From assembly GCA_016178075.1 (NCBI GenBank), contig JACOUA010000341.1, positions 1 to 36,168 on the forward strand: a DNA stretch of 36,168 bases. Direction: 5' to 3'. Numbering within the stretch: the stretch's first letter is position 1; every line of letters begins with the position of its first letter. Position numbers and translations under genes: made by a program. The stretch comes from Acidobacteriota bacterium. Its GTDB lineage: Bacteria > Acidobacteriota > Vicinamibacteria > Vicinamibacterales > JACQTH01. This document shows positions 1,165 to 29,693 of the stretch, piece by piece. A model generated the notes under the pieces. The model saw only the letters and a list, made by a program, of their open reading frames with translations. It searched no databases and was not told the DNA's origin.

Positions 1165-1316
1165 GAATCGGGTGATTGAGGATTTGGTGATTGATTGGTC
1201 GATTGAAAATCGGGTGATTGGGCATCTATTGTCAATTGACAATAAATTGAACATTTCCGAAATTCGCCAATCTGCCAATCAATCACGAGATCTCCATTCA
1301 CCAAATCTTCAAATGT
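1165..1316. repeat. Intergenic word palindrome (GATTG/GGTGA words) with a central 18-bp palindrome
   Basis: The gap between the membrane protein and nrdR is AT-rich against a very GC-rich background. The left arm (1165-1220) is made of quasi-tandem GATTG, GGTGATTG and GATTTGGTGA words, and the right arm (about 1261-1310) holds their reverse complements. Exact matches include GTGATTGATTGG at 1187-1198 with CCAATCAATCAC at 1275-1286, and GATTTGGTGA at 1181-1190 with TCACCAAATC at 1298-1307. The centre is a perfect 18-bp palindrome, TATTGTCAATTGACAATA, at 1227-1244. It could form a long cruciform or RNA hairpin; function unknown. Confidence 0.7.
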
Positions 1317-1327
1317 AGGTCTTTATT

Positions 1328-1786
1328 GTGAAATGTCCGTACTGCGCCCATCTCGGCGACAAGGTCGTCGACTCGCGGGAAAGCAAGGAAGGCGAAGTCA
1401 TCCGCCGGCGGCGCGAGTGCCTCGGCTGCGGCCGCCGCTTCACGAGCTACGAGCGGATCGATGAGATCCCGTACATGGTGGTCAAGAAAGACGGGAGCCG
1501 CGAGCGCTTCGAGCGGCAAAAGCTGATCGCCGGGCTGCTCAAGGCGTGCGAGAAGCGGCCGGTCACCGTCTCCGCGCTCGAAGCGATTGCCGACAAGGTG
1601 GAGGCGGCCCTCCAGGAACGGCCGGACCGGGAGATCGCAACGGCGGAGATCGGCCAGTTCGTGATGCAGGAGTTGAAGCGCCTTGACAAGGTCGCGTACG
1701 TGCGGTTTGCTTCCGTGTACCGGCACTTCCGCGACATCGGGGAATTCATGAGCGAGCTGAAAGGTCTGCTCGACGCGAAGGAATGA
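1328..1786 (+). CDS. nrdR: Transcriptional repressor NrdR
   Basis: NrdR is a zinc-ribbon/ATP-cone repressor that senses (d)ATP and represses ribonucleotide reductase genes. The 152-residue protein has the usual family length. The zinc ribbon is visible at Cys3, Cys6, Cys31 and Cys34, followed by [20 protein letters not shown], and an ATP-cone domain fills about residues 49-139. The start is GTG (1328); no stronger start lies upstream, and the protein begins with the canonical MKCPYC. Its stop overlaps the next start as ATGA, so it is probably cotranscribed with the DUF4390 and NtrYX-like genes. No nrd structural gene is in the window. Confidence 0.96.
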
Positions 1787-2319
1787 CGCGCGCCCACCTC
1801 ACCTGGCTCGTCGGGCTGTTGTCGGTGACGGCGCTGACCGCGGCGGGCGACATCCGGGTCACCCCTCTGACCCGCGAGGGCCGGGTCTTGGTCTCGTTCG
1901 AGATGCCATCGGGGTTCAACGCCGACATGAAAGCGGCGGTCCACAGCGGGCTGCCGACCACCTTCACGTACGAGGTCGAGCTGCGGCGAGGGCTGTCGTT
2001 CTGGTTCGACCGGACGATCACGTCGGCGACCGTGACCGCCGGGGTGCAGTACGACAACCTCACGCGTCAGCACAAGCTGTCGCTCCTCATCGACGGCCGC
2101 ATAGAGGCCAGCAACGTCACCAACGACGAGGGGGTGGTGGCGAAGTCTCTGACGAGTTTCGAGCGGCTGCCGCTGTTCAACACGACGCAGCTCGAGCCCA
2201 ACGGCGAGTACTACATCCGAGTGCGCCTCCAGACCCGCCCGCGCGTCGGCTGGTTGTTCTTCTGGCCCTGGGATCGGAGCTCCGCCTCGGGCTACGCGAA
2301 GTTCACCTTCATCCCGTGA
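1783..2319 (+). CDS. DUF4390 domain-containing exported protein
   Basis: A 178-residue protein with an N-terminal hydrophobic segment ([16 protein letters not shown], about residues 7-22) that looks like a signal peptide, then a mostly beta-strand domain with [11 protein letters not shown] and the C-terminal block [11 protein letters not shown] typical of DUF4390. In several proteobacteria and acidobacteria DUF4390 proteins are encoded just before an NtrY-like kinase, as here, which suggests a role linked to that periplasmic sensor. The start overlaps the nrdR stop by 4 nt. The biochemical function is not known. Confidence 0.82.
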
Positions 2320-2355
2320 CGATCCTGCAGGCGATCTGCGACGGCTGAACGGGCC

Positions 2356-4683
2356 ATGCCCAGCATCCTGCCCGACGCGAATCGGTCGCCGGCGAGCGTG
2401 TCGGCTCCCGCCCTGCCGCGGAACCGGCGCGCGCGTCCTGCCGTCTCGGCCGGTCCGAGGTCGAAGGCACGCAAGCCGCTCCGCGACAGCCCGCTGCTCA
2501 TTTCCCTCGGCATCCTCCTGCTGCTCGGCGTGCTCATCGGCACGCTGACGCTCGCCAATCGATCGGCCACGTTCTTCACGCCGGATTTCCTGTCCGAGTT
2601 CGTGCTCTACGCGCTGTCGATGGCCGATCTCACGATGGTGGTGGCGCTCTTCTTCGTGCTTGCGCGCAACCTCATCAAGCTGCTCGTCGAGCGCCGACGG
2701 GCGCTGCCGTTCGCCAAGTTTCGCTCGAAGCTGGTGGCGGCGCTCCTGGGGATGACGCTGATTCCCTCGGTGCTCGTCCTGCTGGTGGGCGGCGAGATCA
2801 TCCGCACCAGCGTCGAGCGGTGGTTCAACGCGCCGATGGACGAGATCCTGGCGTCGGCCAACCAGCTCGCGAGCGACTACTACCACGAGCGCCAACAGCT
2901 CGCGCAGGATCACGCGCGGCGGATCGCCGGCACCTTGTCGGCGCTCGATCTCGCCAGCGTCGACCTCAGGCGCATCCAGGACCTCGTCGACCCCGAGGTC
3001 AAGGCGCAGCGTGTCGGTCTGGTGGAGATCTATCGCGTGGTGCCAACCGCGAACGGACGGGCCGAGGTCGTCTCGCTCCTCGAAGTGGCCGCCTCCACGC
3101 TGCCCCGGGACGCGTCCGACCGCGCGTCGGCCGACCGCCTGGCCGCACATGCGGTCCAGGGGCCGGCCGACCCGATCCTCGAGCCGATCGGGCGCGGGGG
3201 CGAGCTCATCAGGGTCGCGTCCCCCATTCGGGGGGCGACCGGACGCATCACGGGTGTGGTCGTCGCCAGCGACTACCTGACGGGCGACGTCGCGACGCGG
3301 CCGCGGCGGATGACGGACGCGTACGAAGCGTACATGCAGCTCCGCGTGCTGAAGGGTCCGCTCACCGGCGTCTATCTGTCGTTTTTCCTGATGCTGACGC
3401 TCATGATCCTCGTGGGCGCCACCTGGATGGGGCTGTACATCGCGAAGCGGATCACCAAGCCGATCCAGACGCTCGCGGCCGCCGCGCGGGAGATCGGCGC
3501 CGGCCATCTGGATCACCGGGTCGAGCGCGAGACGACCGACGAGTTCGGCGGCCTCGTGGACGCGTTCAACACGATGGCGGGCGAGCTGAGCGTCAGCCGT
3601 CGGCGGCTCGAACGGTCGGCGATCGACGTGCAACGCAAGCACCAGGAGGTCGAGACCCGCCGGCGCTACATCGAGACCATCCTGCAGCGAATCGCCACCG
3701 GGGTCATCTCGATTGACGCGCATGACCGCGTCGGTACCGTCAACGGCGCCGCGGGCCGCCTGCTCGGGCTCGACGAATCGGCGGTGGGGAAGCCCGCCAC
3801 CGAGGTGTTCGGGCGGGCGGATCTCGAGCCGTTGCAGAAACTCCTGAACGGCGACGGCCACCTGAAAGGCGAACCGCTGGCCGAAGAGATCGCCCTGACG
3901 CAGGACGGGCGCGAGCTGCACCTCGCGGCGATGGTGACCACGCTGCACGGCGAGGACGGCCGGCCCGAAGGCCGCGTGCTGGTCTTCGACGACATCACGC
4001 CGCTCATCCGATCGCAGAAGGTCGCGGCGTGGCGGGAGGTGGCGAGGCGGCTCGCCCACGAGATCAAGAACCCGCTCACCCCCATTCAGCTCTCGGCCGA
4101 ACGGCTCAAGCGCCACTTCGGCGGGGCGCCGGACGCGACGCGCGCGCTCGTCGACGAGTGCACCAGCACCATCGTCGGCGAGGTCGAATCGCTGAAAGGG
4201 CTGGTCGACGAGTTCTCCCAGTTCGCCCGCATGCCCGCTCCGCGGCGTGCCGCCGTCGACGTCCGGGAACTGCTCCGCGAATCCCTGGCCCTGTACAACG
4301 GGCTCTTCCAGCAGATCACCTTGGTCTCCACCTTCGATCCGGAGCTTCCGCCGGTGCGGATCGACCCCGAGCAGATCCGCCGCGTCCTGATCAACCTGGT
4401 CGACAACGCCGTGGAGGCGATGAACCGGAAGGGCACGATCTGGATCGAGACGGCGCACGACGCCGCCCACGGGCTCGCGCGCATCATCGTCGCCGACGAC
4501 GGGCCGGGCATCCCGGCGGCTGATCGGGACAAGCTGTTCATGCCGTACTACTCGACCAAGCGGCGGGGCAGCGGCCTCGGCCTGGCGATTGTCCGGCGCA
4601 TCGTCTCCGAGCACGGCGGGACGATCGAGGTCGCGGACAACGTGCCCCACGGCACGCGGTTCACGATCGAGTTGCCGCTGTGA
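2356..4683 (+). CDS. NtrY-like membrane sensor histidine kinase
   Basis: A 775-residue kinase. Membrane segments lie at about residues 45-65, 80-105, 125-147 and 335-362, with a large periplasmic loop between the third and fourth. HAMP follows (about 362-415, ITKPIQTLAAAAREIGAG), then PAS (about 430-540), HisKA with phospho-accepting His568 in LAHEIKNPLTPIQLSAERLK, and HATPase_c with N-box INLVDNAVEAM, DDGPGIP, MPYYSTK and GSGLGLAIVRRI. This order is that of NtrY rather than cytosolic NtrB. Its partner is the sigma-54 activator just downstream. In NtrYX systems the signal relates to nitrogen, redox or envelope state; the signal here is unknown. Confidence 0.92.
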   Translation: MPSILPDANRSPASVSAPALPRNRRARPAVSAGPRSKARKPLRDSPLLISLGILLLLGVLIGTLTLANRSATFFTPDFLSEFVLYALSMADLTMVVALFFVLARNLIKLLVERRRALPFAKFRSKLVAALLGMTLIPSVLVLLVGGEIIRTSVERWFNAPMDEILASANQLASDYYHERQQLAQDHARRIAGTLSALDLASVDLRRIQDLVDPEVKAQRVGLVEIYRVVPTANGRAEVVSLLEVAASTLPRDASDRASADRLAAHAVQGPADPILEPIGRGGELIRVASPIRGATGRITGVVVASDYLTGDVATRPRRMTDAYEAYMQLRVLKGPLTGVYLSFFLMLTLMILVGATWMGLYIAKRITKPIQTLAAAAREIGAGHLDHRVERETTDEFGGLVDAFNTMAGELSVSRRRLERSAIDVQRKHQEVETRRRYIETILQRIATGVISIDAHDRVGTVNGAAGRLLGLDESAVGKPATEVFGRADLEPLQKLLNGDGHLKGEPLAEEIALTQDGRELHLAAMVTTLHGEDGRPEGRVLVFDDITPLIRSQKVAAWREVARRLAHEIKNPLTPIQLSAERLKRHFGGAPDATRALVDECTSTIVGEVESLKGLVDEFSQFARMPAPRRAAVDVRELLRESLALYNGLFQQITLVSTFDPELPPVRIDPEQIRRVLINLVDNAVEAMNRKGTIWIETAHDAAHGLARIIVADDGPGIPAADRDKLFMPYYSTKRRGSGLGLAIVRRIVSEHGGTIEVADNVPHGTRFTIELPL

Positions 4684-4686
4684 CAC

Positions 4687-4774
4687 GGAAGTGAGAATTG
4701 AGAATTCAGAAATGAGAAGCAATTCAAGACCGCCGGTGTTTTTTTCTCACTTCGAACTTCCGACTTCTCAATTC
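4687..4774. repeat. Intergenic word palindrome (GAGAA/GAAGT words) between the NtrY- and NtrX-like genes
   Basis: The left arm (4687-4719) consists of quasi-tandem GAAGTGAGAA, TTGAGAA and ATGAGAAG words. The right arm (4744-4774) contains the reverse complements (TTCTCACTTC, ACTTCTCAATTC). A run of seven T (4739-4745) lies at the edge of the loop. The structure separates a kinase from its cognate regulator, so partial termination or transcript stabilisation is possible. Its build matches the elements at 1.2, 9.7, 19.8, 24.7 and 29.6 kb. Confidence 0.65.
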
Positions 4775-4790
4775 GCCTGGTGAGGGTTCT

Positions 4791-6182
<1,392 letters not shown>

Positions 6183-6207
6183 TCTCCCGGGCATTCGTTC
6201 CCACCTC

Positions 6208-7038
6208 ATGACCGATCCGGTCCGCACCGATCTGAAAGACACGCCGGAGCCGTTGAGCGCGGCCGAGCGCGAGGCGCGTGTCGAGGAGCTGCTGCTCACG
6301 GGACTCGATCGCTATTTTTCCGGTCATTACGAAGAAGCCGCGCACATCTGGACGCGCGTGCTGTTCCTGGATCGTGGACATGCGCGGGCCCGTGCCTATA
6401 TCGATCGGGCCCGCAGCGCGCAAGCGGAGCAGCTGCGTGAGCTCGACGAGATGCTGCATGCAGGTCTGGCCGCCTTCAACCGCGGCGACAAGGAGCAGGC
6501 CCGGCGCCAGCTGACAGCCGTCGTCCAGCGCGGCGGGACCAACGAGCTCGCGCAGGCGTGTCTCGACCGCCTCGATCGGCTCGAGGCCGGAGGCATCCTG
6601 ACCGCCGACAGCCCCCTGCGGCCCGGCACGCGGGAGGCGGGGGGCATCGTCAAGCGTCCCGCGCCCGCCACCAAGCGCAGCCGCGTCGCCGGACTGTTCC
6701 TGCTGGCCGCCTTGCTGGTCGCGGTCGCGGCCCTCGGGTTCACCTACTGGGATCACGTGCAGCGGTATGTCTGGTTCGACATCCCGTGGCTGCGAGTCGG
6801 AACGGAGCGCGTCGTGGCGGCACCCGACGCGGGGGAATCGGTGCCTCTCGTGAGACCCGCAGAGCTGATCCTCGCGCGCGCGCGTCAGCTCTACTCCGAC
6901 GGCCACCTTCGCGACGCGCTGCGGGCGCTCGACGCGATCCCCCGCACTGACACGCTGTGGCTGCAGGCCGAGCGGCTACGCGCCGAAATCCAGCAGGTGC
7001 TCTTGAAGGGCCCGCCGCCCTTGCCGCCATCGGCATGA
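6208..7038 (+). CDS. TPR-containing single-pass membrane protein
   Basis: A 276-residue protein. The N-terminal half has helical TPR-like repeats (about residues 25-60 LLTGLDRYFSGHYEEAAHIW, and 82-125 LDEMLHAGLAAFNRGDKEQA). A membrane segment follows near 155-175 (VAGLFLLAALLVAVAALGF), and a further TPR-like helix pair lies near the C-terminus (LILARARQLYSDGHLRDALRAL). It is probably a scaffold at the inner membrane. ATG 6208 is chosen because in-frame sequence upstream overlaps the regulator gene and reads as non-coding. The stop overlaps the next ATG by 4 nt, implying translational coupling with the RDD gene. Function unknown. Confidence 0.72.
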   Translation: MTDPVRTDLKDTPEPLSAAEREARVEELLLTGLDRYFSGHYEEAAHIWTRVLFLDRGHARARAYIDRARSAQAEQLRELDEMLHAGLAAFNRGDKEQARRQLTAVVQRGGTNELAQACLDRLDRLEAGGILTADSPLRPGTREAGGIVKRPAPATKRSRVAGLFLLAALLVAVAALGFTYWDHVQRYVWFDIPWLRVGTERVVAAPDAGESVPLVRPAELILARARQLYSDGHLRDALRALDAIPRTDTLWLQAERLRAEIQQVLLKGPPPLPPSA

Positions 7039-7904
7039 AGTGCCCGAAATGCGGCTACGTCGGCTTCGAGGAGGGCGACCGGTGTCGCAATTGCGGTTAC
7101 GAATTCTCGCTGGCTGATCTGACGAGCGAGCGGCCGGAAAGGTCCGACCCTGTCGCTGACGATGTCGACGATCTCCCGGTCGTCAGACCCTCTTCACGTC
7201 CGATCGACCTCGACCGCATCATCGGCGCGCCTGAACCGCCACGCTCGACCACCGAGCTGCCGCTCTTTACCGACAAAGCCGGAGAGAGCGATGATGCGCC
7301 ACTCGTCAGGCCGTCAGCGACGCCGCGCCCCCCGCTCTCGGTCCGGCGTCAGGCGCCCCAGCCGCCGCGCCTTCGTCCCCGTGCCGCGCCCCCTGCGCGC
7401 GAGCTCGACCTGGAAGACGCGGATTCCGGGCCGGCGTGGGAACCGTCGTGGCATGCCGAGCCTGCGCTGTCCCATCAGATGGCCGAGCCCGCCGATCCGG
7501 GGCCGCGTCTTCTGGCAGCGGCCATCGATGTGCTCCTCATCGTGGTCATCGACGCGAGCGTGGTGTACTTCACATTGCGGCTGTCTCGCCTCGGCCTTGC
7601 CGAGCTGCCGACGCTGCCGCTTCTGCCGATACTCGGGTTCTTTCTTCTGCTCAACGGCGGATACCTCGCGGCATTCACCGCTGCCGGTGGGCAGACCGTC
7701 GGCAAGATGACGACTGGCGTCCGCGTCGTCGGCGAAGGAGACCGGGCCGTGGAGTTCAGCCGGGCGTTGCTTCGAACGCTGGCGTACCTCGTGTCGGTCG
7801 TGCCCTTGGGGCTCGGGTTCATTCCCGCGTTTTTCGACGAAGATCGCCGCGCGCTGCACGATCGGCTGACCCACACCCGTGTCATCAAGGTCGCGGCAGC
7901 CTGA
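7035..7904 (+). CDS. Zinc-ribbon plus RDD-family membrane protein
   Basis: A 289-residue protein that starts with a CxxC...CxxC zinc ribbon (Cys3, Cys6, Cys17, Cys20). A long acidic and proline-rich linker (about 30-150) follows, then an RDD domain (about 155-285) with three membrane segments and the pattern GPRLLAAAIDVLLI, GQTVGKMTTGVRVV and DRLTHTRVIKV. RDD proteins are small membrane proteins, some linked to ion transport, most uncharacterised. The cytosolic ribbon may mediate protein contacts. It overlaps the TPR gene by ATGA and is followed closely by pgpA. Confidence 0.8.
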   Translation: MKCPKCGYVGFEEGDRCRNCGYEFSLADLTSERPERSDPVADDVDDLPVVRPSSRPIDLDRIIGAPEPPRSTTELPLFTDKAGESDDAPLVRPSATPRPPLSVRRQAPQPPRLRPRAAPPARELDLEDADSGPAWEPSWHAEPALSHQMAEPADPGPRLLAAAIDVLLIVVIDASVVYFTLRLSRLGLAELPTLPLLPILGFFLLLNGGYLAAFTAAGGQTVGKMTTGVRVVGEGDRAVEFSRALLRTLAYLVSVVPLGLGFIPAFFDEDRRALHDRLTHTRVIKVAAA

Positions 7905-7959
7905 TCCGGTCGATTCCGGCGCGCTCCCAACCGTGACGACCAGCCAGCGGCCCGACGCG

Positions 7960-8424
7960 ATGACGCGGGTCGCCATCCTCGTCTGCACCTTCGGCTACAT
8001 CGGCTTCTTTCCGATTGCCCCCGGAACGGTTGGCTCGATGGCGGGGCTGGTCGTGTACTGGATCCTGCACGTCGCCGGCCAGGATCAGCTGTTGCCCGCC
8101 ATGGTCGGCGTGCTCCTGGTCGCCGGCGTGTGGAGCGGCACGATCGCGGAGCGCCACTTCGGGGCGATCGATCCTGGGCCCATCGTGATCGACGAGGTCG
8201 CCGGCATGCTGATCACGCTGGCGTTCGTTCCGGCTGGATGGTCGGTCGCGGGCGTCGGGTTCTTGGTGTTCCGCCTCTTCGACATCATCAAGCCGTTCCC
8301 CTCCGCGCGGCTCGAGCGCCTCCCTGGCGGTGCCGGGATCATGGCTGACGATGCGATGGCGGCCGTCTACGCGAATCTGGTGGTTCGGGTCTTCGCGTGG
8401 CTCGGATCCGCTTGGGGCTGGTAA
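7960..8424 (+). CDS. pgpA: Phosphatidylglycerophosphatase A
   Basis: PgpA dephosphorylates phosphatidylglycerophosphate to phosphatidylglycerol at the inner membrane. The protein (about 154 residues) has the family motifs FFPIAPGTVGS near the N-terminus, DPGPIVIDEVAGM in the middle and FRLFDIIKPFP further on, with three to four hydrophobic segments. ATG 7960 places the first motif at the expected distance from the N-terminus; GTG 7933 in frame is an alternative, and neither has a clear Shine-Dalgarno. The stop overlaps the cinA start by one base (TAATG). Neighbouring plsY and gpsA support a phospholipid context. Confidence 0.9.
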   Translation: MTRVAILVCTFGYIGFFPIAPGTVGSMAGLVVYWILHVAGQDQLLPAMVGVLLVAGVWSGTIAERHFGAIDPGPIVIDEVAGMLITLAFVPAGWSVAGVGFLVFRLFDIIKPFPSARLERLPGGAGIMADDAMAAVYANLVVRVFAWLGSAWGW

Positions 8425-9683
8425 TGCTGCGGAAGGCTGAGATCATCGCCGTCGGCACCGAGCTGCTGACGCCGCACCGGCTCGACACGAACTCGCTGGC
8501 GATCACCGAGCGATTGAACGACATCGGCATCGACGTCCGCACGAAGGCGGTCGTCGGCGACGATCGCGGTGACTTGCAGGCGCTTTTCGTTCAGGCGCTG
8601 GAGCGTGCGGATCTGATCGTGCTGACCGGTGGGCTCGGGCCGACCGACGACGATCTGACGCGTGAAGTGGTGGCCGACGTCCTGCAGCTGCCGCTCGAGG
8701 AAGACCCATCGATCGCGAACCGGATCCGCGGCCGCTTCGAGCGCCGGGGCCTGCGGATGCCGGACATCAATCGGCGCCAGGCGATGGTCCCACGCGGCGC
8801 GAAGGTCCTGGACAACCCGAACGGCACGGCGCCGGGCCTCATTCTTGAGCGCGGCGACAAGCTGGTGGTGCTGCTCCCCGGTCCGCCGCGCGAGATGAAG
8901 CCGATGCTCGAGATCGCGCTTCGTCATCATCTGGAGCCGCGGTCCGGCGGCGTGAAGCTTCTTCGCCGCATCCTGCGCGTCACCGGCCGGACCGAGTCGC
9001 ACGTCGAGGAGGTGGCCCAGCCGGTGTACGGCCGCTGGAGCCGGGGCCCCGACGCGATCTCCACGACGATTCTCGCGAGCCCCGGCCAGATCGAGCTGCA
9101 CCTGACAACGCTGTCGGATGATGTGACAGCCGCATCGGCCCGACTGGAGCGGGCCGTACGCGAGCTGATGGATGTCCTCGGAGCGGACGTGTTCAGCGTC
9201 GATGGTAGAACGCTGGAGCAGGTCGTAGGCGCGCTGCTGCGCGATCGGCACATTCGCCTCGCGCTCGCCGAGTCCTGCACCGGCGGGTTGACGACGTCGC
9301 GGCTGACCGACGTGCCCGGAAGCTCCGACTACGTCGAACGGGGCATCGTGTGCTACAGCAACCGATCGAAAGTCGAGCTGCTTGGCGTGCCGGCGACGCT
9401 CATCGAGACGCACGGCGCGGTCAGCGAGGAGGTGGCACTCGAGATGGCGCGCGGCATCCGCGATCGCGCGGGCGTCGACATGGGTGTCGCCATTACCGGC
9501 ATCGCGGGGCCAGGTGGCGGACGCGAGGAAAAGCCGGTCGGCACGGTCTTCGTCGCGGCCGTACGGACCGGCGAGCCGGTCGTCCGGCGCTTCCGGTTTC
9601 CGGGTTCGCGCGACATGATCAAGTCCCAGGCGGCGCAGGCCGCGCTGGACCTTGTTCGGCGGACATTACGAAGTGAGAAGTAG
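8424..9683 (+). CDS. cinA: CinA-family nicotinamide-nucleotide amidohydrolase
   Basis: CinA proteins combine an N-terminal MoCF-like (COG1058) domain, often an ADP-ribose pyrophosphatase, with a C-terminal PncC domain that deamidates NMN in the pyridine nucleotide cycle. At 419 residues the length is standard. The N-terminus MLRKAEIIAVGTELL and LTGGLGPTDDDLTREVVA mark the first domain; the PncC domain has AESCTGGL with Ser284, and GVAITGIAGPGGG. ATG 8424 begins on the last base of the pgpA stop, with GGGG just upstream. The pgpA-cinA arrangement is common in bacteria. Confidence 0.94.
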   Translation: MLRKAEIIAVGTELLTPHRLDTNSLAITERLNDIGIDVRTKAVVGDDRGDLQALFVQALERADLIVLTGGLGPTDDDLTREVVADVLQLPLEEDPSIANRIRGRFERRGLRMPDINRRQAMVPRGAKVLDNPNGTAPGLILERGDKLVVLLPGPPREMKPMLEIALRHHLEPRSGGVKLLRRILRVTGRTESHVEEVAQPVYGRWSRGPDAISTTILASPGQIELHLTTLSDDVTAASARLERAVRELMDVLGADVFSVDGRTLEQVVGALLRDRHIRLALAESCTGGLTTSRLTDVPGSSDYVERGIVCYSNRSKVELLGVPATLIETHGAVSEEVALEMARGIRDRAGVDMGVAITGIAGPGGGREEKPVGTVFVAAVRTGEPVVRRFRFPGSRDMIKSQAAQAALDLVRRTLRSEK

Positions 9684-9703
9684 GACTTCTGACTTCTCAT
9701 TTC
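9670..9703. repeat. Short word palindrome (GAAGTGAGAAGT) across the cinA stop codon
   Basis: Arms GAAGTGAGAAGT (9670-9681) and ACTTCTCATTTC (9692-9703) pair at 11 of 12 positions. The left arm includes the first base of the cinA TAG stop, and the element ends 5 nt before the thpR ATG. Its vocabulary is the same as that of the 4.7-kb element. Confidence 0.6.
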
Positions 9704-9708
9704 TTCAG

Positions 9709-10287
9709 ATGAGACTCTTCGTGGCGGTCGATCTCGACGAGGCGAGCCGGCAGGCGGCAGTTCGGCTCACCACGAACCTGGCTCGGAAGATCGAGGCGAC
9801 GATCCGGCCAGCGCCCCGGATCGGCTGGGTCACGGGCGAACGGATGCACCTGACGCTCCGCTTTATCGGGGAAGTCGACGACCAGGTGGCGAGCGACATC
9901 CAGCGCGCTCTCGAGCCCGCGTACCCGGTTCCGTCCTTCGACCTCGAGCTCGGCGGCGTCGGCATGTTCCCGCCCTCGGGATCTCCGCGGGTTATGTGGA
10001 TCGGCATCACGCGTGGCGCCGACTCGCTGGCGCGCGTGAGTCGATTGGTGGAAGATCGGTTGGCGCCGTTCGGCCTCGAGAAGGAGAATCGTCCGTTTGC
10101 GGCGCACCTGACCCTGGGCCGCGTTCGCGAGCGAGGAAGCGCGGCTCTTCGCGCCCTGCTGGCCGGCGCAGGGTTCGAGCCCCGCATGAGTCGCGTCACG
10201 CACGTGACGCTGTACCAGAGTCGCCTGTCGCCGAAAGGGCCAACCTACGTGCCGATCGTAATGTCGCCCCTGAGTAACCAAGTGTGA
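9709..10287 (+). CDS. thpR: RNA 2',3'-cyclic phosphodiesterase
   Basis: A 2H phosphoesterase that opens 2',3'-cyclic phosphates on RNA (formerly 2'-5' RNA ligase). Both signature tetrads are intact: HLTL (His47, Thr49) followed by RF, and HLTL (His133, Thr135) followed by GR. At 192 residues the length is normal for the family. ATG 9709 gives the canonical MRLFVAVDL start. It follows cinA by 25 nt, the gap being filled by the small palindrome, and precedes plsY by 16 nt, so one operon is likely. Confidence 0.95.
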   Translation: MRLFVAVDLDEASRQAAVRLTTNLARKIEATIRPAPRIGWVTGERMHLTLRFIGEVDDQVASDIQRALEPAYPVPSFDLELGGVGMFPPSGSPRVMWIGITRGADSLARVSRLVEDRLAPFGLEKENRPFAAHLTLGRVRERGSAALRALLAGAGFEPRMSRVTHVTLYQSRLSPKGPTYVPIVMSPLSNQV

Positions 10288-10303
10288 TGAATCGAGGGGT
10301 TGT

Positions 10304-10924
10304 GTGCAAGAAATGATGCTTCTGGCTTTAGCCCTTGGCTACGTGATCGGATCGATTCCGTTCGCGCTGCTGCTGCCGCGGCGCGCCGCCGGCGTCGACG
10401 TGCGCCGGCTCGGGAGCGGCAATCCCGGCGCGGCCAACGTGTTGCGGTCGGCTGGTACGCGCCTGGGCGTGAGCGTCATGGCGCTCGACGTTGCGAAAGG
10501 CGTGTCGGCGGTGCTCCTCGCCGGTCGCTTCGGAAGCCAGGCTCCCGCTGGGCCCGCGGACCTGGCCGTGTCGGCGGCGGCCGGCGTGGCCTCGATCGTC
10601 GGCCATGTGTTCCCCGTGTGGCTGCGGTTCCGTGGCGGAAAGGGGGTCGCGACGACGTGCGGTGTGTTCGCGATCCTCGCGCCGGCCGCGACGGTCGTGG
10701 CCGGCGTGGCCTTTGTCGTCACAACCTGGATCACGCGATACGTGTCGCTGGGATCGCTCGTAGCCAGCCTGGCGCTGGGCCCCGTGGCGTACTGGACCAA
10801 CGCGGCACCGTCCGCCGTCGTGGCGGCATTCATCGCGGGCTTCCTGATTCTTCATCGTCATCGCGAGAATCTCGGTCGGCTGATGGCCGGCACCGAGCGA
10901 CGGCTGGGGCAGGGCGTGAGATGA
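10304..10924 (+). CDS. plsY: Acyl-phosphate:glycerol-3-phosphate acyltransferase PlsY
   Basis: PlsY acylates glycerol-3-phosphate from acyl-phosphate, the first step of phospholipid synthesis in most bacteria. The 206-residue membrane protein has about five TM segments and all three loop motifs: GSIPFALLL, SGNPGAANVLR and GHVFPVWLRFRGGKGVAT. GTG 10304 follows GAGGGG (10294-10299) at a rather short spacing; in-frame ATGs at 10313 and 10316 are alternatives with better spacing. It overlaps gpsA by ATGA, so the donor of glycerol-3-phosphate is made next door. Confidence 0.95.
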   Translation: MQEMMLLALALGYVIGSIPFALLLPRRAAGVDVRRLGSGNPGAANVLRSAGTRLGVSVMALDVAKGVSAVLLAGRFGSQAPAGPADLAVSAAAGVASIVGHVFPVWLRFRGGKGVATTCGVFAILAPAATVVAGVAFVVTTWITRYVSLGSLVASLALGPVAYWTNAAPSAVVAAFIAGFLILHRHRENLGRLMAGTERRLGQGVR

Positions 10925-18053: not shown

Positions 18054-18079
18054 ACCAGCCTCCCGACTGGAACGCCCTC

Positions 18080-18586: not shown

Positions 18587-18636
18587 CGAAGCTTCGCTTC
18601 GTTACTAGACCCGGCGGCCGCTTCCGCGGCCGCCGG
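18582..18636. repeat. Two adjacent perfect hairpins between rimM and trmD
   Basis: The first stem pairs AGTAACGAAG (18582-18591) with CTTCGTTACT (18597-18606) around CTTCG and includes the rimM stop. The second pairs an 11-bp arm at 18611-18621 with 18626-18636 around TTCC, all G/C. No T tract follows. They could stop or stabilise the transcript inside an otherwise tight operon, setting different levels of rimM and trmD-rplS. Confidence 0.6.
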
Positions 18637-18700
18637 CTAAGCCGGGCTCGCACGGCCAAGTTGAGGTCCGTACGCTTTTTCAGACGTGCGAGCACGGCTA

Positions 18701-19465: not shown

Positions 19466-19799
19466 GAAAATCGAGCGCTCACAGCTGGCCGATCGCCCGC
19501 CGATGAAATCCGGGGATACCATCAGGGTACACGTCAAGGTTCGGGAAGGCGACAAAGAGCGGATCCAGGTGTTCGAGGGGATCGTCATCGGGATGCACCG
19601 GGGCGGGCTCCGCGCCTCCTTCACCGTGCGGAAGGTCTCGTTTGGTCAAGGCGTCGAGCGCATTTTTCCGCTCCATTCGCCTGTCATCGACAAGATTGAG
19701 GTCGTGCGATCGTTCAAGGTCCGGCGCGCCAAGCTCTATTACCTGCGCAACCTGAAAGGAAAGGCGGCGCGGATGCGGGAAGCGAAGCGCCCGGCGTGA
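19446..19799 (+). CDS. rplS: 50S ribosomal protein L19
   Basis: 117 residues, normal for bL19, with [23 protein letters not shown] and the block [19 protein letters not shown], then [17 protein letters not shown] at the C-terminus. ATG 19446 is preceded by a purine-rich GGAAGGGAG. Overlap with the trmD 3' end is 20 nt, so initiation depends on ribosomes finishing trmD or on internal entry. Confidence 0.98.
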
Positions 19800-19802
19800 C
19801 AT

Positions 19803-19879
19803 GGCTCAAGGCTCATGGCTTAGAGGGCTCAGGCACGAGCGCTTGGGATCCTCGAGCCTTGAGCCTTAAGCCCTAAGCC
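19803..19879. repeat. Intergenic word palindrome (GGCTCAAGG/GGCTTAG words) between rplS and rnhB
   Basis: The left arm (19803-19833) is made of GGCTCAAGGCTC, ATGGCTTAG and AGGGCTCAGG words. The right arm (19850-19879) carries the reverse complements (GAGCCTTGAGCC, TTAAGCCCTAAGCC). The element fills almost the whole 86-nt gap between the rplS stop and the rnhB start. Arms built from quasi-tandem words in opposite orientations are the same build as at 1.2, 4.7, 9.7, 24.7 and 29.6 kb. Confidence 0.7.
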
Positions 19880-19885
19880 GTTCCT

Positions 19886-20563
19886 ATGCGCGTGCGCGCG
19901 ATGCGGACGATCGAGAACGCCTGTCGAAGGATGGGCTTCGTTCGGGTCGCGGGCGTGGATGAGGTCGGCCGTGGGTGCCTCGCGGGCCCGGTGATGGCGG
20001 GCGCAGTGGTCTTGAACCCGGATCGCGCCATCGCGGGGCTCCGCGATTCGAAGATGCTCTCGGCCCAGGCGCGCGACCGGCTGTTCGACGTCATTCAGTC
20101 GGAGGCGAGCGCGTGGAGCGTCGCGGAGGTCGAGCCAGTCGAGATCGACGAGGTCAACATCCACCAGGCTTCGCTGCAGGCGATGCGGAAGGCGGTGCTG
20201 GCCCTCGATCCGCTTCCCGACCTCGTGCTCGTCGACGCGTTCCGGATTCCCGACCTCTGGATGGCCCAGCGCCGCGTGATCCACGGAGACCGCCGATGCT
20301 CGTCAATCGCGGCAGCTTCGATCATGGCGAAGGTCACGCGCGATCGCTGCATGCAGCGCCTCCACGAAACCGACCCGCGCTACGGGTTTGATCGCCACAA
20401 AGGGTATGCGACCGCCGATCATCTCGAGGCCGTCGCGCGCTTCGGGTACTCGCCGGTCCATCGCCGATCGTTTCGTCCGCCGTCGCTCTTCGACGTCCTC
20501 GAGGTTGCCGACATCGGGCTTCGTACCGATAACGCGCTCCATAGCGATGAATCTCTCGAGTAA
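19886..20563 (+). CDS. rnhB: Ribonuclease HII
   Basis: RNase HII removes ribonucleotides and RNA from DNA-RNA hybrids. The 225-residue protein has the signature AGVDEVGRGCLAGPV with catalytic Asp25-Glu26, Asp117 in LVLVDAFRIP, and the SSIAAASIMAKVTRDR block. ATG 19886 or 19901 could start it. The C-terminus carries an acidic tail of about 20 residues beyond the core. rplS-rnhB adjacency is widely conserved. Confidence 0.96.
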   Translation: MRVRAMRTIENACRRMGFVRVAGVDEVGRGCLAGPVMAGAVVLNPDRAIAGLRDSKMLSAQARDRLFDVIQSEASAWSVAEVEPVEIDEVNIHQASLQAMRKAVLALDPLPDLVLVDAFRIPDLWMAQRRVIHGDRRCSSIAAASIMAKVTRDRCMQRLHETDPRYGFDRHKGYATADHLEAVARFGYSPVHRRSFRPPSLFDVLEVADIGLRTDNALHSDESLE

Positions 20564-24659: not shown

Positions 24660-24699
24660 GGTTAGGGCCCGGAAAGGAATAAAGGTGTCATCTTGGGCT

Positions 24700-24771
24700 A
24701 TCAGTCATCAGTTTTCAGTTATTTGCGGGCGAGATCCGAACTGAAAACTGACTACTGAGAACTGAAAACTG
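24700..24771. repeat. Intergenic word palindrome (TCAGTT words) downstream of polX
   Basis: The left arm (24700-24720) reads as TCAGTCATCAGTTTTCAGTT. The right arm (24739-24771) is made of AACTGAAAACTG and ACTGAGAACTG words, the reverse complements. The loop is GC-rich. The vocabulary is the same as that of the element at 29593-29688, 4.9 kb away. It ends 2 nt from the polX stop. Confidence 0.75.
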
Positions 24772-24773
24772 CA

Positions 24774-26489
24774 CTAGCGGTGACGACGGAGCAGCTTCTG
24801 GAATTCCTCGACCGGCTTCGTGTTGAGGACGTCCTCGGGCCTGAGCCATGCCCGGCGCGCAACCAGCGCGCCCCATTCGAGCGCGCTGAACCCGGCTTGC
24901 GCGTGTGCATCGGTCGCGATAACGATGTTGGCGCCGCGCTCGCGTGCGAGCCGGGCGTGTGCGTCATTCAGATCCAGCCGATCCACCTGACAATTGATCT
25001 CCAGCGCCACACCCTGCCGGGCCGCGGCGTCGATGATCTTGCCCATCTCGACCCGGTACGGCTCCCGCCGGAGGATGAGCCGGCCGGTCGGGTGGCCCAG
25101 CACGTCGACGAAGGGACACTCCAGCGCCCGCAGGATTCGACGGGTCATCTGCGACTCATCCTGATTGAACGCCGAGTGGACGGAGGCGATGACCAGATCG
25201 AGCTGGGCCAGACAGTCGTCTGCCAGGTCCATCGCCCCGTCCGGCCTGATGTCGCATTCGATTCCTGCCAGCAGCGTGACGCCCTCGACCCGGCCGTTCA
25301 GGGCGCGAATGCGCGCGGCGTGCTCGAGCGCGCGGCGCTCGTCGAGGCCGTTCGCCATGGAGAGTGACTGGCTATGATCCGTGATCGCCAGATAGCTCAG
25401 GCCGGCCGCCCGGGCTCCCAGAGCCATCGCTTCGATGTCATCCCGTCCGTCGGTCACGTTCGTGTGCGCGTGGAGATCGCCCTTCAGGTCCTCGAGGGCG
25501 ACGAGTCTTGGCAGCGCGTGCGCTTCGGCAGCCTCGATCTCGCCGCGGTTCTCGCGCAGCTCCGGCGGCACACAAGCGAGCCCAAGCCTCTCGTAGATCT
25601 CCTCTTCGGTCGCGCCGCCAATGCGCTCGCCGGACTCGACCCGATACAGGCCGTATTCGTTCAGCTTCAGCCCGCGCTGCATCGCGCGGTCGCGAAGGAC
25701 GATGTTGTGGAGCTTCGAGCCGGTGAAGTACTGCATCGCGGCGCCGCGACTCTCCTGCGGGACGAGACGCAGATCGGCCTGTAGTCCACCGCGCAGCATG
25801 ACGCTCGACTTCGTGTCGCCTTTAACGAGAACGCGTTCCACTAGACCGTATTGGGCGAACCGGTCCATCAGGTCGCCCGTCCCGCCGACCGCGAGGACGT
25901 CCAGGTCGCCGCACGTCTCGCATCCGCGGCGAAGGCTCCCGACGGGGATGAACTCGACCGCCGGCGCGATCTCCTGGAGATACTCGATGAGGCCGCGCGC
26001 GCTCCTGGCGACGTGGGCCATGAGATGGCGCCCCTCGCGCCTCCGCCGTTCATCCAACGCTTTGAGGATCAGCTCCTCCTTCCGCGCGCCCATTCCGCGC
26101 AGATCGCGCAGACGGCCGCCGCGCGCTGCGTGTTCCAGATCCTCGAGGGTCCGAACGCCGAGCTCTGTATGGAGGAGGGCCACGGTCTTCGCGCCCACCC
26201 CCTGAAGTCGAAGGATGTCGATCAGCGACGATGGGAATTCCTGCAGCAGCGCCTGATGGTAGGCGAGGTGGCCGGTCGCCGCCAGTTCTTGAATCTTGCG
26301 TGCGAGGTCCTTCCCGATGCCGGGGATTCTCAGGAGCTGCGGTTCGTCGAGGCCTGACAGTCGCTCGGCCGAGTTGGCGATGACCTCGGCGGCGGTGCGG
26401 TACGCGCGGATGCGAAACGGGTTCTCGCCCTTGATTTCGAGCAGATCGGCGATCTGGACGAAGACGCGGGAGATGGTGGTGTTATCCAA
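24774..26489 (-). CDS. polX: DNA polymerase X family protein with PHP domain (PolX)
   Basis: Bacterial PolX fills short gaps in base-excision repair and carries a PHP 3'-5' exonuclease. The 571-residue protein has the usual length. In order: an N-terminal helix-hairpin-helix region (IPGIGKDLARKI, LQGVGAKTVALL, LRGMGARKEEL), the nucleotidyltransferase palm with GSLRRGCETCGDLDVL (metal-binding Asp pair), and a C-terminal PHP domain (DLHAHTNVTDGRDDIEAM, ITDHSQS, GHPTGRL, IATDAHA). The start is TTG 26489, which reads MDNTTISRVFVQIADLLEIKG as in the family and overlaps the upstream kinase stop (TTGGATAA). The in-frame sequence upstream is non-coding. Confidence 0.94.
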   Translation of the reverse strand: MDNTTISRVFVQIADLLEIKGENPFRIRAYRTAAEVIANSAERLSGLDEPQLLRIPGIGKDLARKIQELAATGHLAYHQALLQEFPSSLIDILRLQGVGAKTVALLHTELGVRTLEDLEHAARGGRLRDLRGMGARKEELILKALDERRRREGRHLMAHVARSARGLIEYLQEIAPAVEFIPVGSLRRGCETCGDLDVLAVGGTGDLMDRFAQYGLVERVLVKGDTKSSVMLRGGLQADLRLVPQESRGAAMQYFTGSKLHNIVLRDRAMQRGLKLNEYGLYRVESGERIGGATEEEIYERLGLACVPPELRENRGEIEAAEAHALPRLVALEDLKGDLHAHTNVTDGRDDIEAMALGARAAGLSYLAITDHSQSLSMANGLDERRALEHAARIRALNGRVEGVTLLAGIECDIRPDGAMDLADDCLAQLDLVIASVHSAFNQDESQMTRRILRALECPFVDVLGHPTGRLILRREPYRVEMGKIIDAAARQGVALEINCQVDRLDLNDAHARLARERGANIVIATDAHAQAGFSALEWGALVARRAWLRPEDVLNTKPVEEFQKLLRRHR

Positions 26490-27485: not shown

Positions 27486-28674
27486 GAAGAGCATTTCCGT
27501 GCCTCGCCATCTCCATCGTCAGGTCGGTCAGCTCGCGATGGTCGGCTTCGACGGTCCGACCGTCCCGACAGAGCTGAAGGCGCTGGCGCGCGAGTTCGAT
27601 ATCGGCGGGGTCGTCCTGCTTGCGCGGAATATCGAGGCGCCCGAGCAGGTGGCCGAGCTCGTCCACGACCTGCAGCGCCTCGCGCGTGAGACGCCTTTGT
27701 GGGTGGCGGTCGATCAGGAGGGTGGGCGCGTCACGCGGCTGCGGCGTCCGTTCACCGAATGGCCAGCGATGCGCGCGCTTGGGCGGAGCGGCGACGATCG
27801 GCTCGCCGAGGATTTTGCGCGCGCGCTGGCCGTCGAATTGCGGGCCGTCGGGATCTCGCTCGATTTCGCGCCCGTCCTGGACCTTGACACCAATCCCCAC
27901 AACCCGGTGATCGGCGACCGCGCGCTCGGCGAGCGTCCGGACGAGGTGGCGCGACTCGGGGCGATCATCATTCGGACGCTCCAAGCACACGGGGTCGCGG
28001 CCTGCGGCAAACACTTTCCGGGGCACGGCGACACGAGCGTCGACTCGCATCTCGATCTGCCCGTGATCGAGCATCCCCCCGATCGATTGCGCGCCGTCGA
28101 GGTCGCGCCGTTTCGCGCGGCGATCGCCGAGAAGGTGGCGTCGATCATGGTCGCGCACGTGCTGGTGCCGTCGCTCGATGACCAAGCGCCGGCCAGCCTG
28201 TCCCGCGCCGTGGTGCACGAGCTGCTGCGGGGCGAGCTCGGCTTCGATGGGCTCATCCTCACCGACGATCTCGGCATGCGTGCCGTGTCCGACCGCCATT
28301 CGACCGCGCGCGCCGCTGTGGCCGCGGTGGCGGCGGGATCGGACGCCGTGCTGGTGTGCGATCCCAGCCACGATCGGCACGCGGGCGCCCTCGAGGCGAT
28401 CGTGCGAAGCGTCGAAGCCGGCGTGCTTCCCCTGCGCACGGTGGATGACGCAATCGAGCGACACCGAACAATCAAGGCCCGGTTCGGCCCCGCGGAGGCC
28501 CAGCCCCCCGTCGCGGATGACGGGTCGAGAAACGCAGCCATCGCCGAGGTCCTCGCCGCTCCGGTGCCGCTGTCACGCGAGTGGCGTCCACCTTCGTCCC
28601 GAACGCTCCGTGCGGTGCTCGGATCGGACGAGCATCAAGCCATCGCGTCGCGTCTGGCGGAATTCGCGTGCTGA
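27484..28674 (+). CDS. nagZ: Beta-N-acetylhexosaminidase NagZ (GH3)
   Basis: NagZ cleaves GlcNAc from GlcNAc-anhydroMurNAc peptides during peptidoglycan recycling. The signature loop KHFPGHGDTSVDSH is at residues 176-189, and the nucleophile region LILTDDLGM includes Asp261-Asp262. The barrel starts with LAMVGFDGP and includes VDQEGGRVTRLR. At 396 residues it is somewhat longer than typical single-domain NagZ (about 340), the extra length being C-terminal. No signal peptide is seen, consistent with a cytosolic enzyme. GTG 27499 is an alternative start. The stop overlaps the ldcA start by 7 nt. Confidence 0.94.
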   Translation: MKSISVPRHLHRQVGQLAMVGFDGPTVPTELKALAREFDIGGVVLLARNIEAPEQVAELVHDLQRLARETPLWVAVDQEGGRVTRLRRPFTEWPAMRALGRSGDDRLAEDFARALAVELRAVGISLDFAPVLDLDTNPHNPVIGDRALGERPDEVARLGAIIIRTLQAHGVAACGKHFPGHGDTSVDSHLDLPVIEHPPDRLRAVEVAPFRAAIAEKVASIMVAHVLVPSLDDQAPASLSRAVVHELLRGELGFDGLILTDDLGMRAVSDRHSTARAAVAAVAAGSDAVLVCDPSHDRHAGALEAIVRSVEAGVLPLRTVDDAIERHRTIKARFGPAEAQPPVADDGSRNAAIAEVLAAPVPLSREWRPPSSRTLRAVLGSDEHQAIASRLAEFAC

Positions 28675-29591
28675 AGCCGCGAGCCCTGAAGTCGGGAGAC
28701 CGGATCGCGGTGGTGGCCCCCGCCAGCCCCTTCGATCGCGAGGCGTTCGATCGTGGTCTCGACGAGCTGCGGGCTCTCGGGTTCGAGCCGCTTTTCGATC
28801 AGACGGTGTTCGAACGGAGCGGGTACGTGGCGGGTGCCGCCGCCCTCAGAGCCGATGCGATCCTGACCGCCTGGAACGACCCGGGCGTCACGGCCCTCAT
28901 CGGCGTGCGCGGCGGATACGGCAGCGTGCAGGTGCTGCAGCATCTCGATCGCGAGCGCCTGCGCGCGCACCCCAAGGCGCTCATCGGCTACAGCGATCTG
29001 ACCTCGCTCCTGGTGTTTCTCGGCACCGGCTGTCAGATCGTTTGCTTCCACGGACCGATGTTGGAACGCAAGCTGGCGGCGGGCGCCGACGGGTACGATC
29101 GACGATCGTTTCTGCAGGCCCTGACGATGACCGAGCCGCTGGGCGTGCTGACCGGCCCGCATCTCGAGTCGATCCGTCCCGGCGCGGCCGCCGGCCCGCT
29201 CTTCGGCGGCACGTTGACCCCAATCGTCGGGTCGCTCGGGACGCCGTTTGCGTTCGATCCACCCTCCGGCTCGGTTCTCTTTCTCGACGAAGTCAGCGAG
29301 CGTCCGTACCGCCTGGATCGGATGATCACCCAACTGCGCCTCAGCGGCATCGTCGATCGAGCCGCCGCGATCGTGTTCGGCGAGTGTCCGGGCTGTGACG
29401 AGCCGGGTGGCACGTATACGGCGCGCGGCGCAGTCGCCGCCGCGCTCGAGGACTTTGGCGGGCCGGTGCTCTTCGGGTTGCCGTCGGGTCACACGATTTC
29501 GCCCGCGCTGACGTTGCCGTTTGGCGTTCGTGCGCGGGTCGACACGTCGCCGGCGCCCAGGCTCGTGATCCAAGAAGCCGCAGTTGAATAG
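28668..29591 (+). CDS. ldcA: LD-carboxypeptidase (S66 family)
   Basis: LdcA removes the terminal D-Ala from tetrapeptides recovered from the wall, giving the tripeptide used by Mpl. The 307-residue protein has the family start LKSGDRIAVVAPASP, the nucleophile Ser109 in IGYSDLTSLL, the RGGYGS block, the Glu-containing VLFLDEVSERPYRLDRM and the His-containing GLPSGHT. The GTG start overlaps nagZ. The order nagZ-ldcA-mpl is a recycling route laid out as consecutive genes. MccF-type immunity proteins share the fold but would not fit this context. Confidence 0.93.
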   Translation: MLKPRALKSGDRIAVVAPASPFDREAFDRGLDELRALGFEPLFDQTVFERSGYVAGAAALRADAILTAWNDPGVTALIGVRGGYGSVQVLQHLDRERLRAHPKALIGYSDLTSLLVFLGTGCQIVCFHGPMLERKLAAGADGYDRRSFLQALTMTEPLGVLTGPHLESIRPGAAAGPLFGGTLTPIVGSLGTPFAFDPPSGSVLFLDEVSERPYRLDRMITQLRLSGIVDRAAAIVFGECPGCDEPGGTYTARGAVAAALEDFGGPVLFGLPSGHTISPALTLPFGVRARVDTSPAPRLVIQEAAVE

Positions 29592-29592
29592 T

Positions 29593-29688
29593 CATCAGTT
29601 CTCAGTTATCAGTTTTCAGTGGAAAGACTCTTCGGGCCGCGCGTGGATCTCAAGGGAAACTGATAACTGAAAACTGTGAACTGAGAAC
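29593..29688. repeat. Intergenic word palindrome (TCAGTT words) between ldcA and mpl
   Basis: The left arm (29593-29620) is built from TCAGTTC, TCAGTTA and TCAGTTTTCAGT words. The right arm (29657-29688) is AACTGATAACTGAAAACTG and GAACTGAGAAC. Allowing register shifts, about 22 of 24 positions of the left arm match the reverse complement of the right. The 36-nt loop is GC-rich. The element begins 2 nt after the ldcA stop and ends 5 nt before the mpl GTG, leaving mpl without a Shine-Dalgarno. Confidence 0.75.
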
Positions 29689-29693
29689 TTCAA

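What the first reader, a model, noticed from the sequence alone, without database searches (positions are those of the whole stretch)
1165..29692. A family of intergenic 'word palindromes' with locus-specific vocabularies
Six gene boundaries (1165-1316, 4687-4774, 9670-9703, 19803-19879, 24700-24771, 29593-29688) carry imperfect inverted repeats whose arms are quasi-tandem runs of 5-9-nt words. The words differ by locus (GATTG/GGTGA; GAGAA/GAAGT; GGCTCAAGG/GGCTTAG; TCAGTT). They are conspicuous in this very GC-rich chromosome and nearly fill the gaps, starting or ending within a few bases of start or stop codons. Arms drift in register yet stay complementary, which suggests slippage or templated inversion with selection for a cruciform or hairpin, not a simple transposon insertion. 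I know of no named element with this build. Possible roles: transcript insulation, RNase landing, nucleoid protein sites.
Basis: partly seen in the sequence, partly recalled or inferred. Interest (0 to 1): 0.78.

Follow-up and report, generated by a model that had tools for sequence, protein, structure and literature searches.

The report
Seven-letter hairpin repeats between genes
This soil or groundwater Acidobacterium carries hundreds of short hairpin-shaped repeats between its genes, each built from a seven-letter word repeated toward a central loop; at least one family jumps like a tiny transposon, and together they show that a scattered, little-explained class of seven-letter bacterial repeats is far more varied than reported.

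Summary
The palindromes are real. In 571 kb sampled from the window's own genome (an Acidobacteriota MAG, 67% GC) there are 105 strong inverted repeats in AT-rich segments, against 2 after shuffling; 100 of the 105 are intergenic. The "5-9-nt words" are almost all one thing: arrays of period 7 (128, against at most 7 at any other basic period). Vocabularies belong to families shared by many loci, not to single loci. In the commonest family (TCAGTTN) six letters are held and the seventh is free. That letter is not shared with the neighbouring word and does not match the opposite arm. All 31 such hairpins point the same way, and their loops are unrelated. This argues against simple slippage or templated inversion. 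One subfamily, of which window 24698-24775 is a truncated copy, is a 118-bp mobile element: 32 insertion sites, interiors mostly identical, exact YTA...TAR ends. Other families also tend to end at TA, often the TA of a stop codon, and come and go in orthologous gaps, even within ribosomal-protein operons. I favour TA-bounded, MITE-like non-autonomous elements. This is shown for one subfamily and inferred for the rest. Precedents are the heptamer repeats of Xanthomonas (GGGAATC) and Beggiatoaceae (TAACTGA).

The parts
1157..1316 (.). Hairpin of the ATTTGGTG/GATTG family (period about 8), between an unnamed ORF (stop TGA 1162-1164, inside the left arm) and nrdR (GTG 1328); arms 49 nt, 78% complementary
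   Evidence: relatives of the same family at L093:7887, L097:121, 1118, 12166
4685..4776 (.). Weak heptad hairpin (TGAGAAN / GAAGTNN words) between a histidine kinase gene and an NtrX-like regulator gene
   Evidence: z only 2.4 on its own
9672..9703 (.). Short GAAGTGA-type hairpin between cinA and the RNA 2',3'-cyclic phosphodiesterase gene (thpR)
   Evidence: z only 2.2 on its own
19802..19880 (.). GGCTCAN/GGCTTAN heptad hairpin between rplS and rnhB
24698..24775 (.). 5'-truncated copy of the 118-bp mobile TCAGTT element (lacks the CTACAGCG...CGCTGTAG left hairpin), ending GCAC|TAG, next to polX
29589..29690 (.). TCAGTTN heptad hairpin between ldcA (stop TAG 29589-29591) and mpl (GTG 29694); absent from the same-genus genome, where the gap is about 6 nt
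32113..32277 (.). Separate 165-bp TA-bounded palindromic element, C-TA-GTGTAGTGTCC...GGACACTACAC-TA-G; other long copies at 96-99% identity and more than 30 copies of its inner 99 bp at 92-97%
   Evidence: absent from the orthologous gap of L001

Best explanation
The word palindromes are a population of short, non-coding, TA-bounded insertion elements of MITE type. Each consists of two inward-facing arrays of one family-specific word of about 7 nt around a loop. In the best sampled family the word has 5-6 held letters plus one free letter. SHOWN for one subfamily (118 bp): it is dispersed, with near-identical copies at about 40 or more places. Its ends are exactly Y-TA | element | TA-R, which fits duplication of a TA target as by IS630/Tc1-mariner transposases. 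INFERRED for the other heptad hairpins: that they too arrived by insertion at TA, and that the held letters are the recognition motif of a cognate transposase or other mobility protein, so the free letter, the loop and exact pairing do not matter. In a GC-rich genome TA is scarce and concentrated at stop codons (TAG, TAA) and TATG starts. That would explain why elements sit on stop and start codons and fill the gaps between genes. They are mostly tolerated spacers, not terminators.
For: 118-bp subfamily: at least 40 copies at 94-100% identity; 32 distinct sites, 16 with an identical 106-nt interior, flanks random outside YTA...TAR. Copies nested in other heptad arrays (L114, L119, L126) leave the host array in heptad phase when the element and one TA are removed (read by eye). 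G006 has a TA-bounded element with the same TACAGCGTTTTTCAC end and a different interior. G000 encodes an IS630-type DDE transposase whose terminal repeat TTAAAGCAAATTTCA is loosely like the element's end. Other hairpins: TA in the 20 nt outside CAGTT arms 70 times against about 5 per 10-nt bin far out; in eight other genomes, 35 of 77 ends against 6 in a control window. Adjacent stops are TAG/TAA 50, TGA 20, against 274 and 277 overall (Fisher p=1e-4). Presence and absence at orthologous gaps between same-genus genomes: rplB/rpsS 153 against 2 nt, rpsS/rplV 3 against 100 nt, ldcA/mpl about 100 against 6 nt. Fixed polarity 31:0, as expected of element ends.
Against: Outside the 118-bp subfamily no near-identical copies were found among CAGTT hairpins: loops are unrelated and free letters differ at every locus. 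Recent copy-and-paste is therefore not shown for them. TA lies at a variable distance from the first word, not at one fixed position. Nested insertions show only that heptad arrays are targets, not that they moved. No transposase has been tied to any heptad word, and the resemblance of the IS630 ends is loose. The 1-2 nt next to TA vary among otherwise identical 118-bp copies, which a precise DDE element should not do. In other genomes many arrays have no inverted partner (partner found for only 9 of 21 in G018 and 14 of 26 in G008).
Confidence: 0.5

Rival explanations
1. Host-functional motif arrays: a nucleic-acid-binding protein recognises the five or six held letters at 7-nt spacing in DNA or mRNA, and the arrays serve as intercistronic regulatory sites for translation, mRNA stability or nucleoid binding. 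MacGregor proposed a post-transcriptional role for TAACTGA.
For: Held letters against a free seventh letter in every heptad of both arms look like recognition. Elements sit within a few nt of stop and start codons in co-transcribed ribosomal-protein genes. They are depleted between divergent genes (odds ratio 0.37, p=0.007). Proposed role: PMC4679880.
Against: Occupancy of the same gaps differs between two genomes of one genus and among genera, without conservation at particular genes. Words differ between relatives. No binding protein is known. Insertion plus purifying selection against damage gives the same positions.
Confidence: 0.25
2. REP/REPIN-like elements moved by a Y1 tyrosine transposase (RAYT): inverted pairs of tagged, conserved ends with variable loops.
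For: REPINs also combine conserved inverted ends with variable loops (own knowledge; PMC3116915 was found but not read in full). GTAG is enriched at arm ends, 26 against 3.0 expected.
Against: Only one Y1 protein was found in G000 (155 aa, which I judge IS200-type) and none in G001, G008 or G018, which also carry heptad hairpins. The GTAG excess may simply be the TAG boundary. REP palindromes are single hairpins, not heptad arrays.
Confidence: 0.12
3. Replication slippage of a heptad followed by templated inversion, with selection for a cruciform or hairpin.
For: Period 7 tandem arrays; a weak excess of equal free letters two heptads apart (30 of 79, 20.3 expected, P=0.01). In the non-CAGTT words of G000, GATTG above all, the arms do resemble each other in position (128 of 179 equal against 71.5 permuted). 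In several other genomes the seventh letter is constant, as slippage would give.
Against: In the CAGTT family of G000: no equality of neighbouring free letters, none between arms, polarity 31:0. The same words recur at many unlinked loci.
Confidence: 0.08
4. Intrinsic terminators or transcript insulators.
For: Long stems; fewer between divergent genes.
Against: 9 of 104 have TTTT within 10 nt of the stem. None of the hairpins in window 1-20000 is among the terminator-like hits. About a dozen lie inside the S10-spc-alpha operon.
Confidence: 0.03

Closest known systems
GGGAATC heptameric repeats of Xanthomonas and GGGGA(C/T)T repeats of Nostoc (Rehm et al. 2015, PMC4692102)
   Same: Period 7; five held positions (GGGANTN); mostly intergenic and nearer the upstream gene; rare between divergent genes; about 70 inverted pairs with convergent orientation per Xanthomonas genome; repeats of similar length not at the same genes in two related species
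   Different: There one G-rich word, attributed to G-quadruplexes, and generally not associated with mobile elements. Here at least ten words, most without G runs, nearly all in inverted pairs, TA-bounded, and one subfamily demonstrably mobile
TAACTGA direct repeats of marine Beggiatoaceae, Cyanobacteria and some Bacteroidetes (MacGregor 2015, PMC4679880)
   Same: TAACTGA is the reverse complement of TCAGTTA, one form of the commonest word here; intergenic, next to start codons, also in ribosomal-protein operons; patchy distribution
   Different: There a fixed seventh letter and direct repeats (169 sets, one indirect). Here the seventh letter is free and the arrays are paired head to head
MITEs of IS630/Tc1-mariner type
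   Same: Small, non-coding, TA-bounded, inverted ends, many near-identical copies (118-bp and 165-bp elements)
   Different: The interior of the 118-bp element is a heptad hairpin; the other heptad hairpins lack near-identical copies
REP elements and REPINs
   Same: Intergenic inverted pairs with conserved ends and variable loops; GTAG at many ends
   Different: No RAYT found; heptad arrays instead of one short palindrome

Membership tests
IS630/Tc1-mariner MITE (118-bp subfamily) | TA target duplicated at both ends | tested here: met
   TA at 30 of 32 left and about 30 of 32 right ends, Y before and R after, random flanks
IS630/Tc1-mariner MITE (118-bp subfamily) | Many near-identical dispersed copies | tested here: met
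   at least 40 copies at 94-100% identity
IS630/Tc1-mariner MITE (118-bp subfamily) | Terminal inverted repeats | tested here: inconclusive
   Imperfect: CAGCGTTTTTCACTTCGC against RTGCAGTTTTCAGTTCTC, 11 of 18 equal, read by eye
IS630/Tc1-mariner MITE (118-bp subfamily) | Cognate transposase with matching ends | tested here: inconclusive
   DDE_3 transposase L131 present, ends only loosely similar; no autonomous copy found among 193 genomes of the class
IS630/Tc1-mariner MITE (heptad hairpins in general) | TA at both ends | tested here: inconclusive
   Strong enrichment but variable offset
IS630/Tc1-mariner MITE (heptad hairpins in general) | Near-identical dispersed copies | tested here: not met
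   Loops and free letters of the CAGTT hairpins differ at each locus
Intergenic heptameric repeats (GGGAATC, TAACTGA) | Period 7 | tested here: met
   128 arrays of period 7 against at most 7 at other basic periods in G000
Intergenic heptameric repeats (GGGAATC, TAACTGA) | Intergenic location | tested here: met
   100 of 105 inverted repeats
Intergenic heptameric repeats (GGGAATC, TAACTGA) | Held core plus free position(s) | tested here: met
   CAGTT, GATTG, TAGTC and CAGCT words
Intergenic heptameric repeats (GGGAATC, TAACTGA) | G-quadruplex capacity (Xanthomonas/Nostoc class) | tested here: not met
   TCAGTTN, GATTGNN and TAGTCNN have no GGG run (direct reading)
REP/REPIN | RAYT (Y1) transposase in the genome | tested here: not met
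   Only one IS200-type Y1 protein in G000 and none in three other carriers; assemblies are 74-97% complete
REP/REPIN | GTAG or CGTC tag beside the palindrome | tested here: inconclusive
   GTAG 26 against 3.0 expected at arm ends
Intrinsic terminator | GC-rich stem followed by a T run | tested here: not met
   9 of 104 with TTTT; no hit at the elements in window 1-20000
Known structured RNA (Rfam) | Match at gathering score | tested here: not met
   No match in the window

The most novel reading that the evidence does not exclude
Each heptad hairpin is composed separately by an unknown machinery that lays down a fixed five- or six-letter motif with one unspecified letter every 7 nt, inward from both sides of an intergenic TA. 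Lineages differ in the words they use. The evidence allows this because in the CAGTT family of G000 the loops are unrelated, the free letters are uncorrelated within and between arms, and the polarity is fixed, while the same-genus genome G001 lacks TCAGTTNTCAGTT altogether.
Probability: 0.1. Interest if true: 0.92.

Novelty: new variant of a known kind. Interest (0 to 1): 0.58.

Why it matters
Heptameric intergenic repeats have been reported piecemeal for decades, each time with one word and a word-specific explanation (G-quadruplex, translational regulator). Here one genome holds ten or more word families built on the same plan: period 7, a held core with a free letter in the families with enough data, fixed head-to-head polarity, TA edges. 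Relatives use other words in the same gaps, even inside ribosomal-protein operons. That rules out G-quadruplexes as the common cause. It also makes the old question of why seven testable: look for the protein that reads the held letters, and for insertion at TA. It further offers a mechanical reason for the hugging of stop and start codons.

Tried and rejected
Rfam: no match. Intrinsic terminators: rejected. G-quadruplex: rejected for most words. RAYT: none found. A longer target duplication (NYTA) for the 118-bp element: rejected, because the two sides often differ and nested sites restore phase with TA alone. An autonomous element with the TACAGCGTTTTTCA end: 193 genomes of the class searched; only G000 and G006 miniature copies and unrelated single hits. 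A generalised arm-pairing test gave P below 0.001 for pairing in other genomes, but synthetic arms with independent letters gave the same excess after detection, so I do not use it as evidence of pairing. Share of mismatches in the two most variable columns: only slightly above expectation because array edges dilute it; replaced by the anchored test. Mirror controls for TAGTC and CAGCT were contaminated by other word families. Paper search for heptanucleotide repeats in Acidobacteria: nothing.
Full report
WHAT WAS CHECKED. The window is contig C317 of an unnamed 4.96-Mb genome (G000, 457 contigs, 87% complete). Its nearest named relative is an Acidobacteria groundwater MAG (L001, mpl 81% identical at protein level). 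L001 appears to be the same genome as G001, the only other member of the genus held, because the match has the same coordinates and contig length. Genes around the six loci are nrdR, a histidine kinase, an NtrX-like regulator, cinA, thpR, rplS, rnhB, polX, ldcA and mpl.

THE OBSERVATION. All six inverted repeats exist. In 571 kb taken from G000, AT-rich segments hold 105 inverted repeats of score 12 or more, against 2 in each of three dinucleotide shuffles; 100 lie outside called genes. My simple gene caller and the choice of contigs (partly picked for carrying TCAGTT) limit the precision of densities, not the contrast. The window has 12 near-matches to TCAGTTNTCAGTT against 0.05 expected; the genome has 505 against 3 for the reversed control.

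SEVEN. The words are arrays of period 7: 128 arrays at period 7, 7 at period 8, at most 2 at any other period from 4 to 13, and 40 at 14, the harmonic (stricter run). More than ten word families occur in G000 (TCAGTTN, GGGATTC, TCAGCTN, GGGATCN, TAGTCGN, GATTGNN, GAAGTNN, CAGTGGC, GGCTCAN and others). The GGTGATTT type at 1157-1316 has period 8. Of 167 arrays, 150 have an inverted partner within 180 nt in G000; in G018 and G008 only 9 of 21 and 14 of 26 do. The array is thus the basic unit, and the head-to-head pair is the habit of G000.

HELD AND FREE LETTERS. In TCAGTT heptads flanked by perfect heptads on both sides (118-bp subfamily left out), C, A, G and T at positions 2-5 are 97-100% constant, positions 1 and 6 are 91% and 85% constant, and position 7 is random. 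GATTG and CAGCT words likewise have one nearly free position, and TAGTC a free A/T position. Neighbouring free letters are independent (34 same, 32.5 expected); two heptads apart there is a weak excess (30 of 79, 20.3 expected, P=0.01). Free letters of the two arms are independent (23 of 76 equal, 20.4 expected), and lower than the 0.377 that independent synthetic arms give after the same detection. All 31 CAGTT hairpins have CAGTT on the 5' side. Loops are unrelated. Two limits apply. The other words of G000, GATTG above all, do show arm-to-arm likeness and the GATTG families share central sequence. In several other genomes of the phylum the seventh letter is mostly constant, for example TCAGTTG in G216, G262, G349 and G371.

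A MOBILE SUBFAMILY. The window copy at 24698-24775 belongs to a 118-bp element found at 40 or more places at 94-100% identity. At 32 distinct sites the interior is mostly identical, and the edges read Y-TA | (C/A/G)AGCG ... GC(A/G/C)(C/T) | TA-R with random flanks. Where it sits inside other heptad arrays (L114, L119, L126), taking out the element and one TA puts the host array back in phase (read by eye). G006 has a different palindrome with the same TACAGCGTTTTTCAC end and also GCAY|TAR on the right. G000 encodes an IS630-type transposase with ends TTAAAGCAAATTTCA. TA duplication with a YTAR preference fits that superfamily (established knowledge); the link to this particular enzyme is a guess.

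EDGES AND PLACEMENT OF THE REST. Outside CAGTT arms TA occurs 70 times in the adjacent 20 nt, against about 5 per 10 nt far out. It often reads TAGTT, the word with its C changed to T. In eight other genomes 35 of 77 ends have TA within 10 nt, against 6 in a control window. Genes that end at an element use TAG or TAA more than others (50 to 20 TGA, against 274 to 277 overall; p=1e-4). Elements lie between co-directional (57) and convergent (29) genes and seldom between divergent ones (9; odds ratio 0.37, p=0.007).

ORTHOLOGOUS GAPS. In the S10-spc-alpha ribosomal operon about a dozen gaps of G000 hold hairpins from several word families, often starting within about 5 nt of a stop codon and running up to the next start. 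Relatives have 0-30 nt in most of these gaps, or a hairpin of their own with other words (CAGTTNA in G018, ACTGGAA and GTAGGAA in G008, GGCTCAA in G006, GTAGCCG in G002). Between G000 and G001, of one genus, rplB/rpsS is 153 against 2 nt, rpsS/rplV 3 against 100 nt and ldcA/mpl about 100 against 6 nt. L005 has a GGGACTG/GGACCAA hairpin in the ldcA/mpl gap. Turnover is therefore at least as fast as genus-level divergence. Because that divergence is large, it does not by itself prove that individual hairpins are young.

MECHANISM. Step 1, dispersal of one subfamily by insertion at TA: shown by sequence. Step 2, the same for the other heptad hairpins: inferred from edges, presence and absence, fixed polarity and genome-specific words. 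Step 3, held letters as recognition sites of a mobility protein: inferred; a host regulator reading the same letters is the main rival. Step 4, no termination: supported. The weak point is that, apart from the 118-bp subfamily, no two CAGTT hairpins look like recent copies of one another. Either the family is old and diverse, heptads are exchanged between arrays, or hairpins are composed one by one (the novel case).

WHAT IS KNOWN. Xanthomonas GGGAATC repeats show the same rule of five held positions, the same intergenic placement after the upstream gene, rarity between divergent genes, about 70 convergent inverted pairs, and differing positions between related species; they were explained by G-quadruplexes (PMC4692102). 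TAACTGA repeats of Beggiatoaceae are the same letters as TCAGTTA (PMC4679880). I therefore file this as a new, much richer variant of a known but unexplained kind, plus one ordinary TA-type miniature transposon.

Noticed in passing
window 32113-32277: A 165-bp TA-bounded palindromic element (ends TAGTGTAGTGTCC...) with several long copies at 96-99% and more than 30 copies of its inner 99 bp (about 92-97% identity) elsewhere in the genome; absent from the orthologous gap of L001.
   Followed up: partly
L101-L130 (copies of the 118-bp element): The 1-2 nt just inside the TA at each end vary (left C/A/G; right N then C/T) although the interior is identical in half the copies; unexplained for a precise DDE element.
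   Followed up: partly
L097:1290-1676: Ribosomal protein S19 (rpsS) reads about 128 aa here, against about 92-95 aa aligned in several relatives; G001, G006, G008 and G018 also have a long C-terminal tail.
   Followed up: no
L001:5120-5240: The gene after mpl in the same-genus genome seems to carry an N-terminal stretch with a roughly 21-nt imperfect repeat (GGGTCCACTCAGTCGTGGGAA) absent from the window.
   Followed up: no
L196, L199, L203, L205 (G006): Another miniature element shares the TACAGCGTTTTTCAC end with the 118-bp element of G000 but has an unrelated palindromic interior (GTAGTGTCCGGCTTTAGCCGGAC), suggesting one enzyme moving different interiors.
   Followed up: partly
G216, G262, G349, G371: Genomes of the same phylum carry TCAGTTG arrays with a mostly constant seventh letter, unlike G000 and G008 where it varies.
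   Followed up: no
L084:4537, L087:15116, L100:2780, L146:13942, L152:11145: CACAGAG-word hairpins (ACCACAGAGCACACAGAG) form a further intergenic family with a longer period than 7.
   Followed up: no
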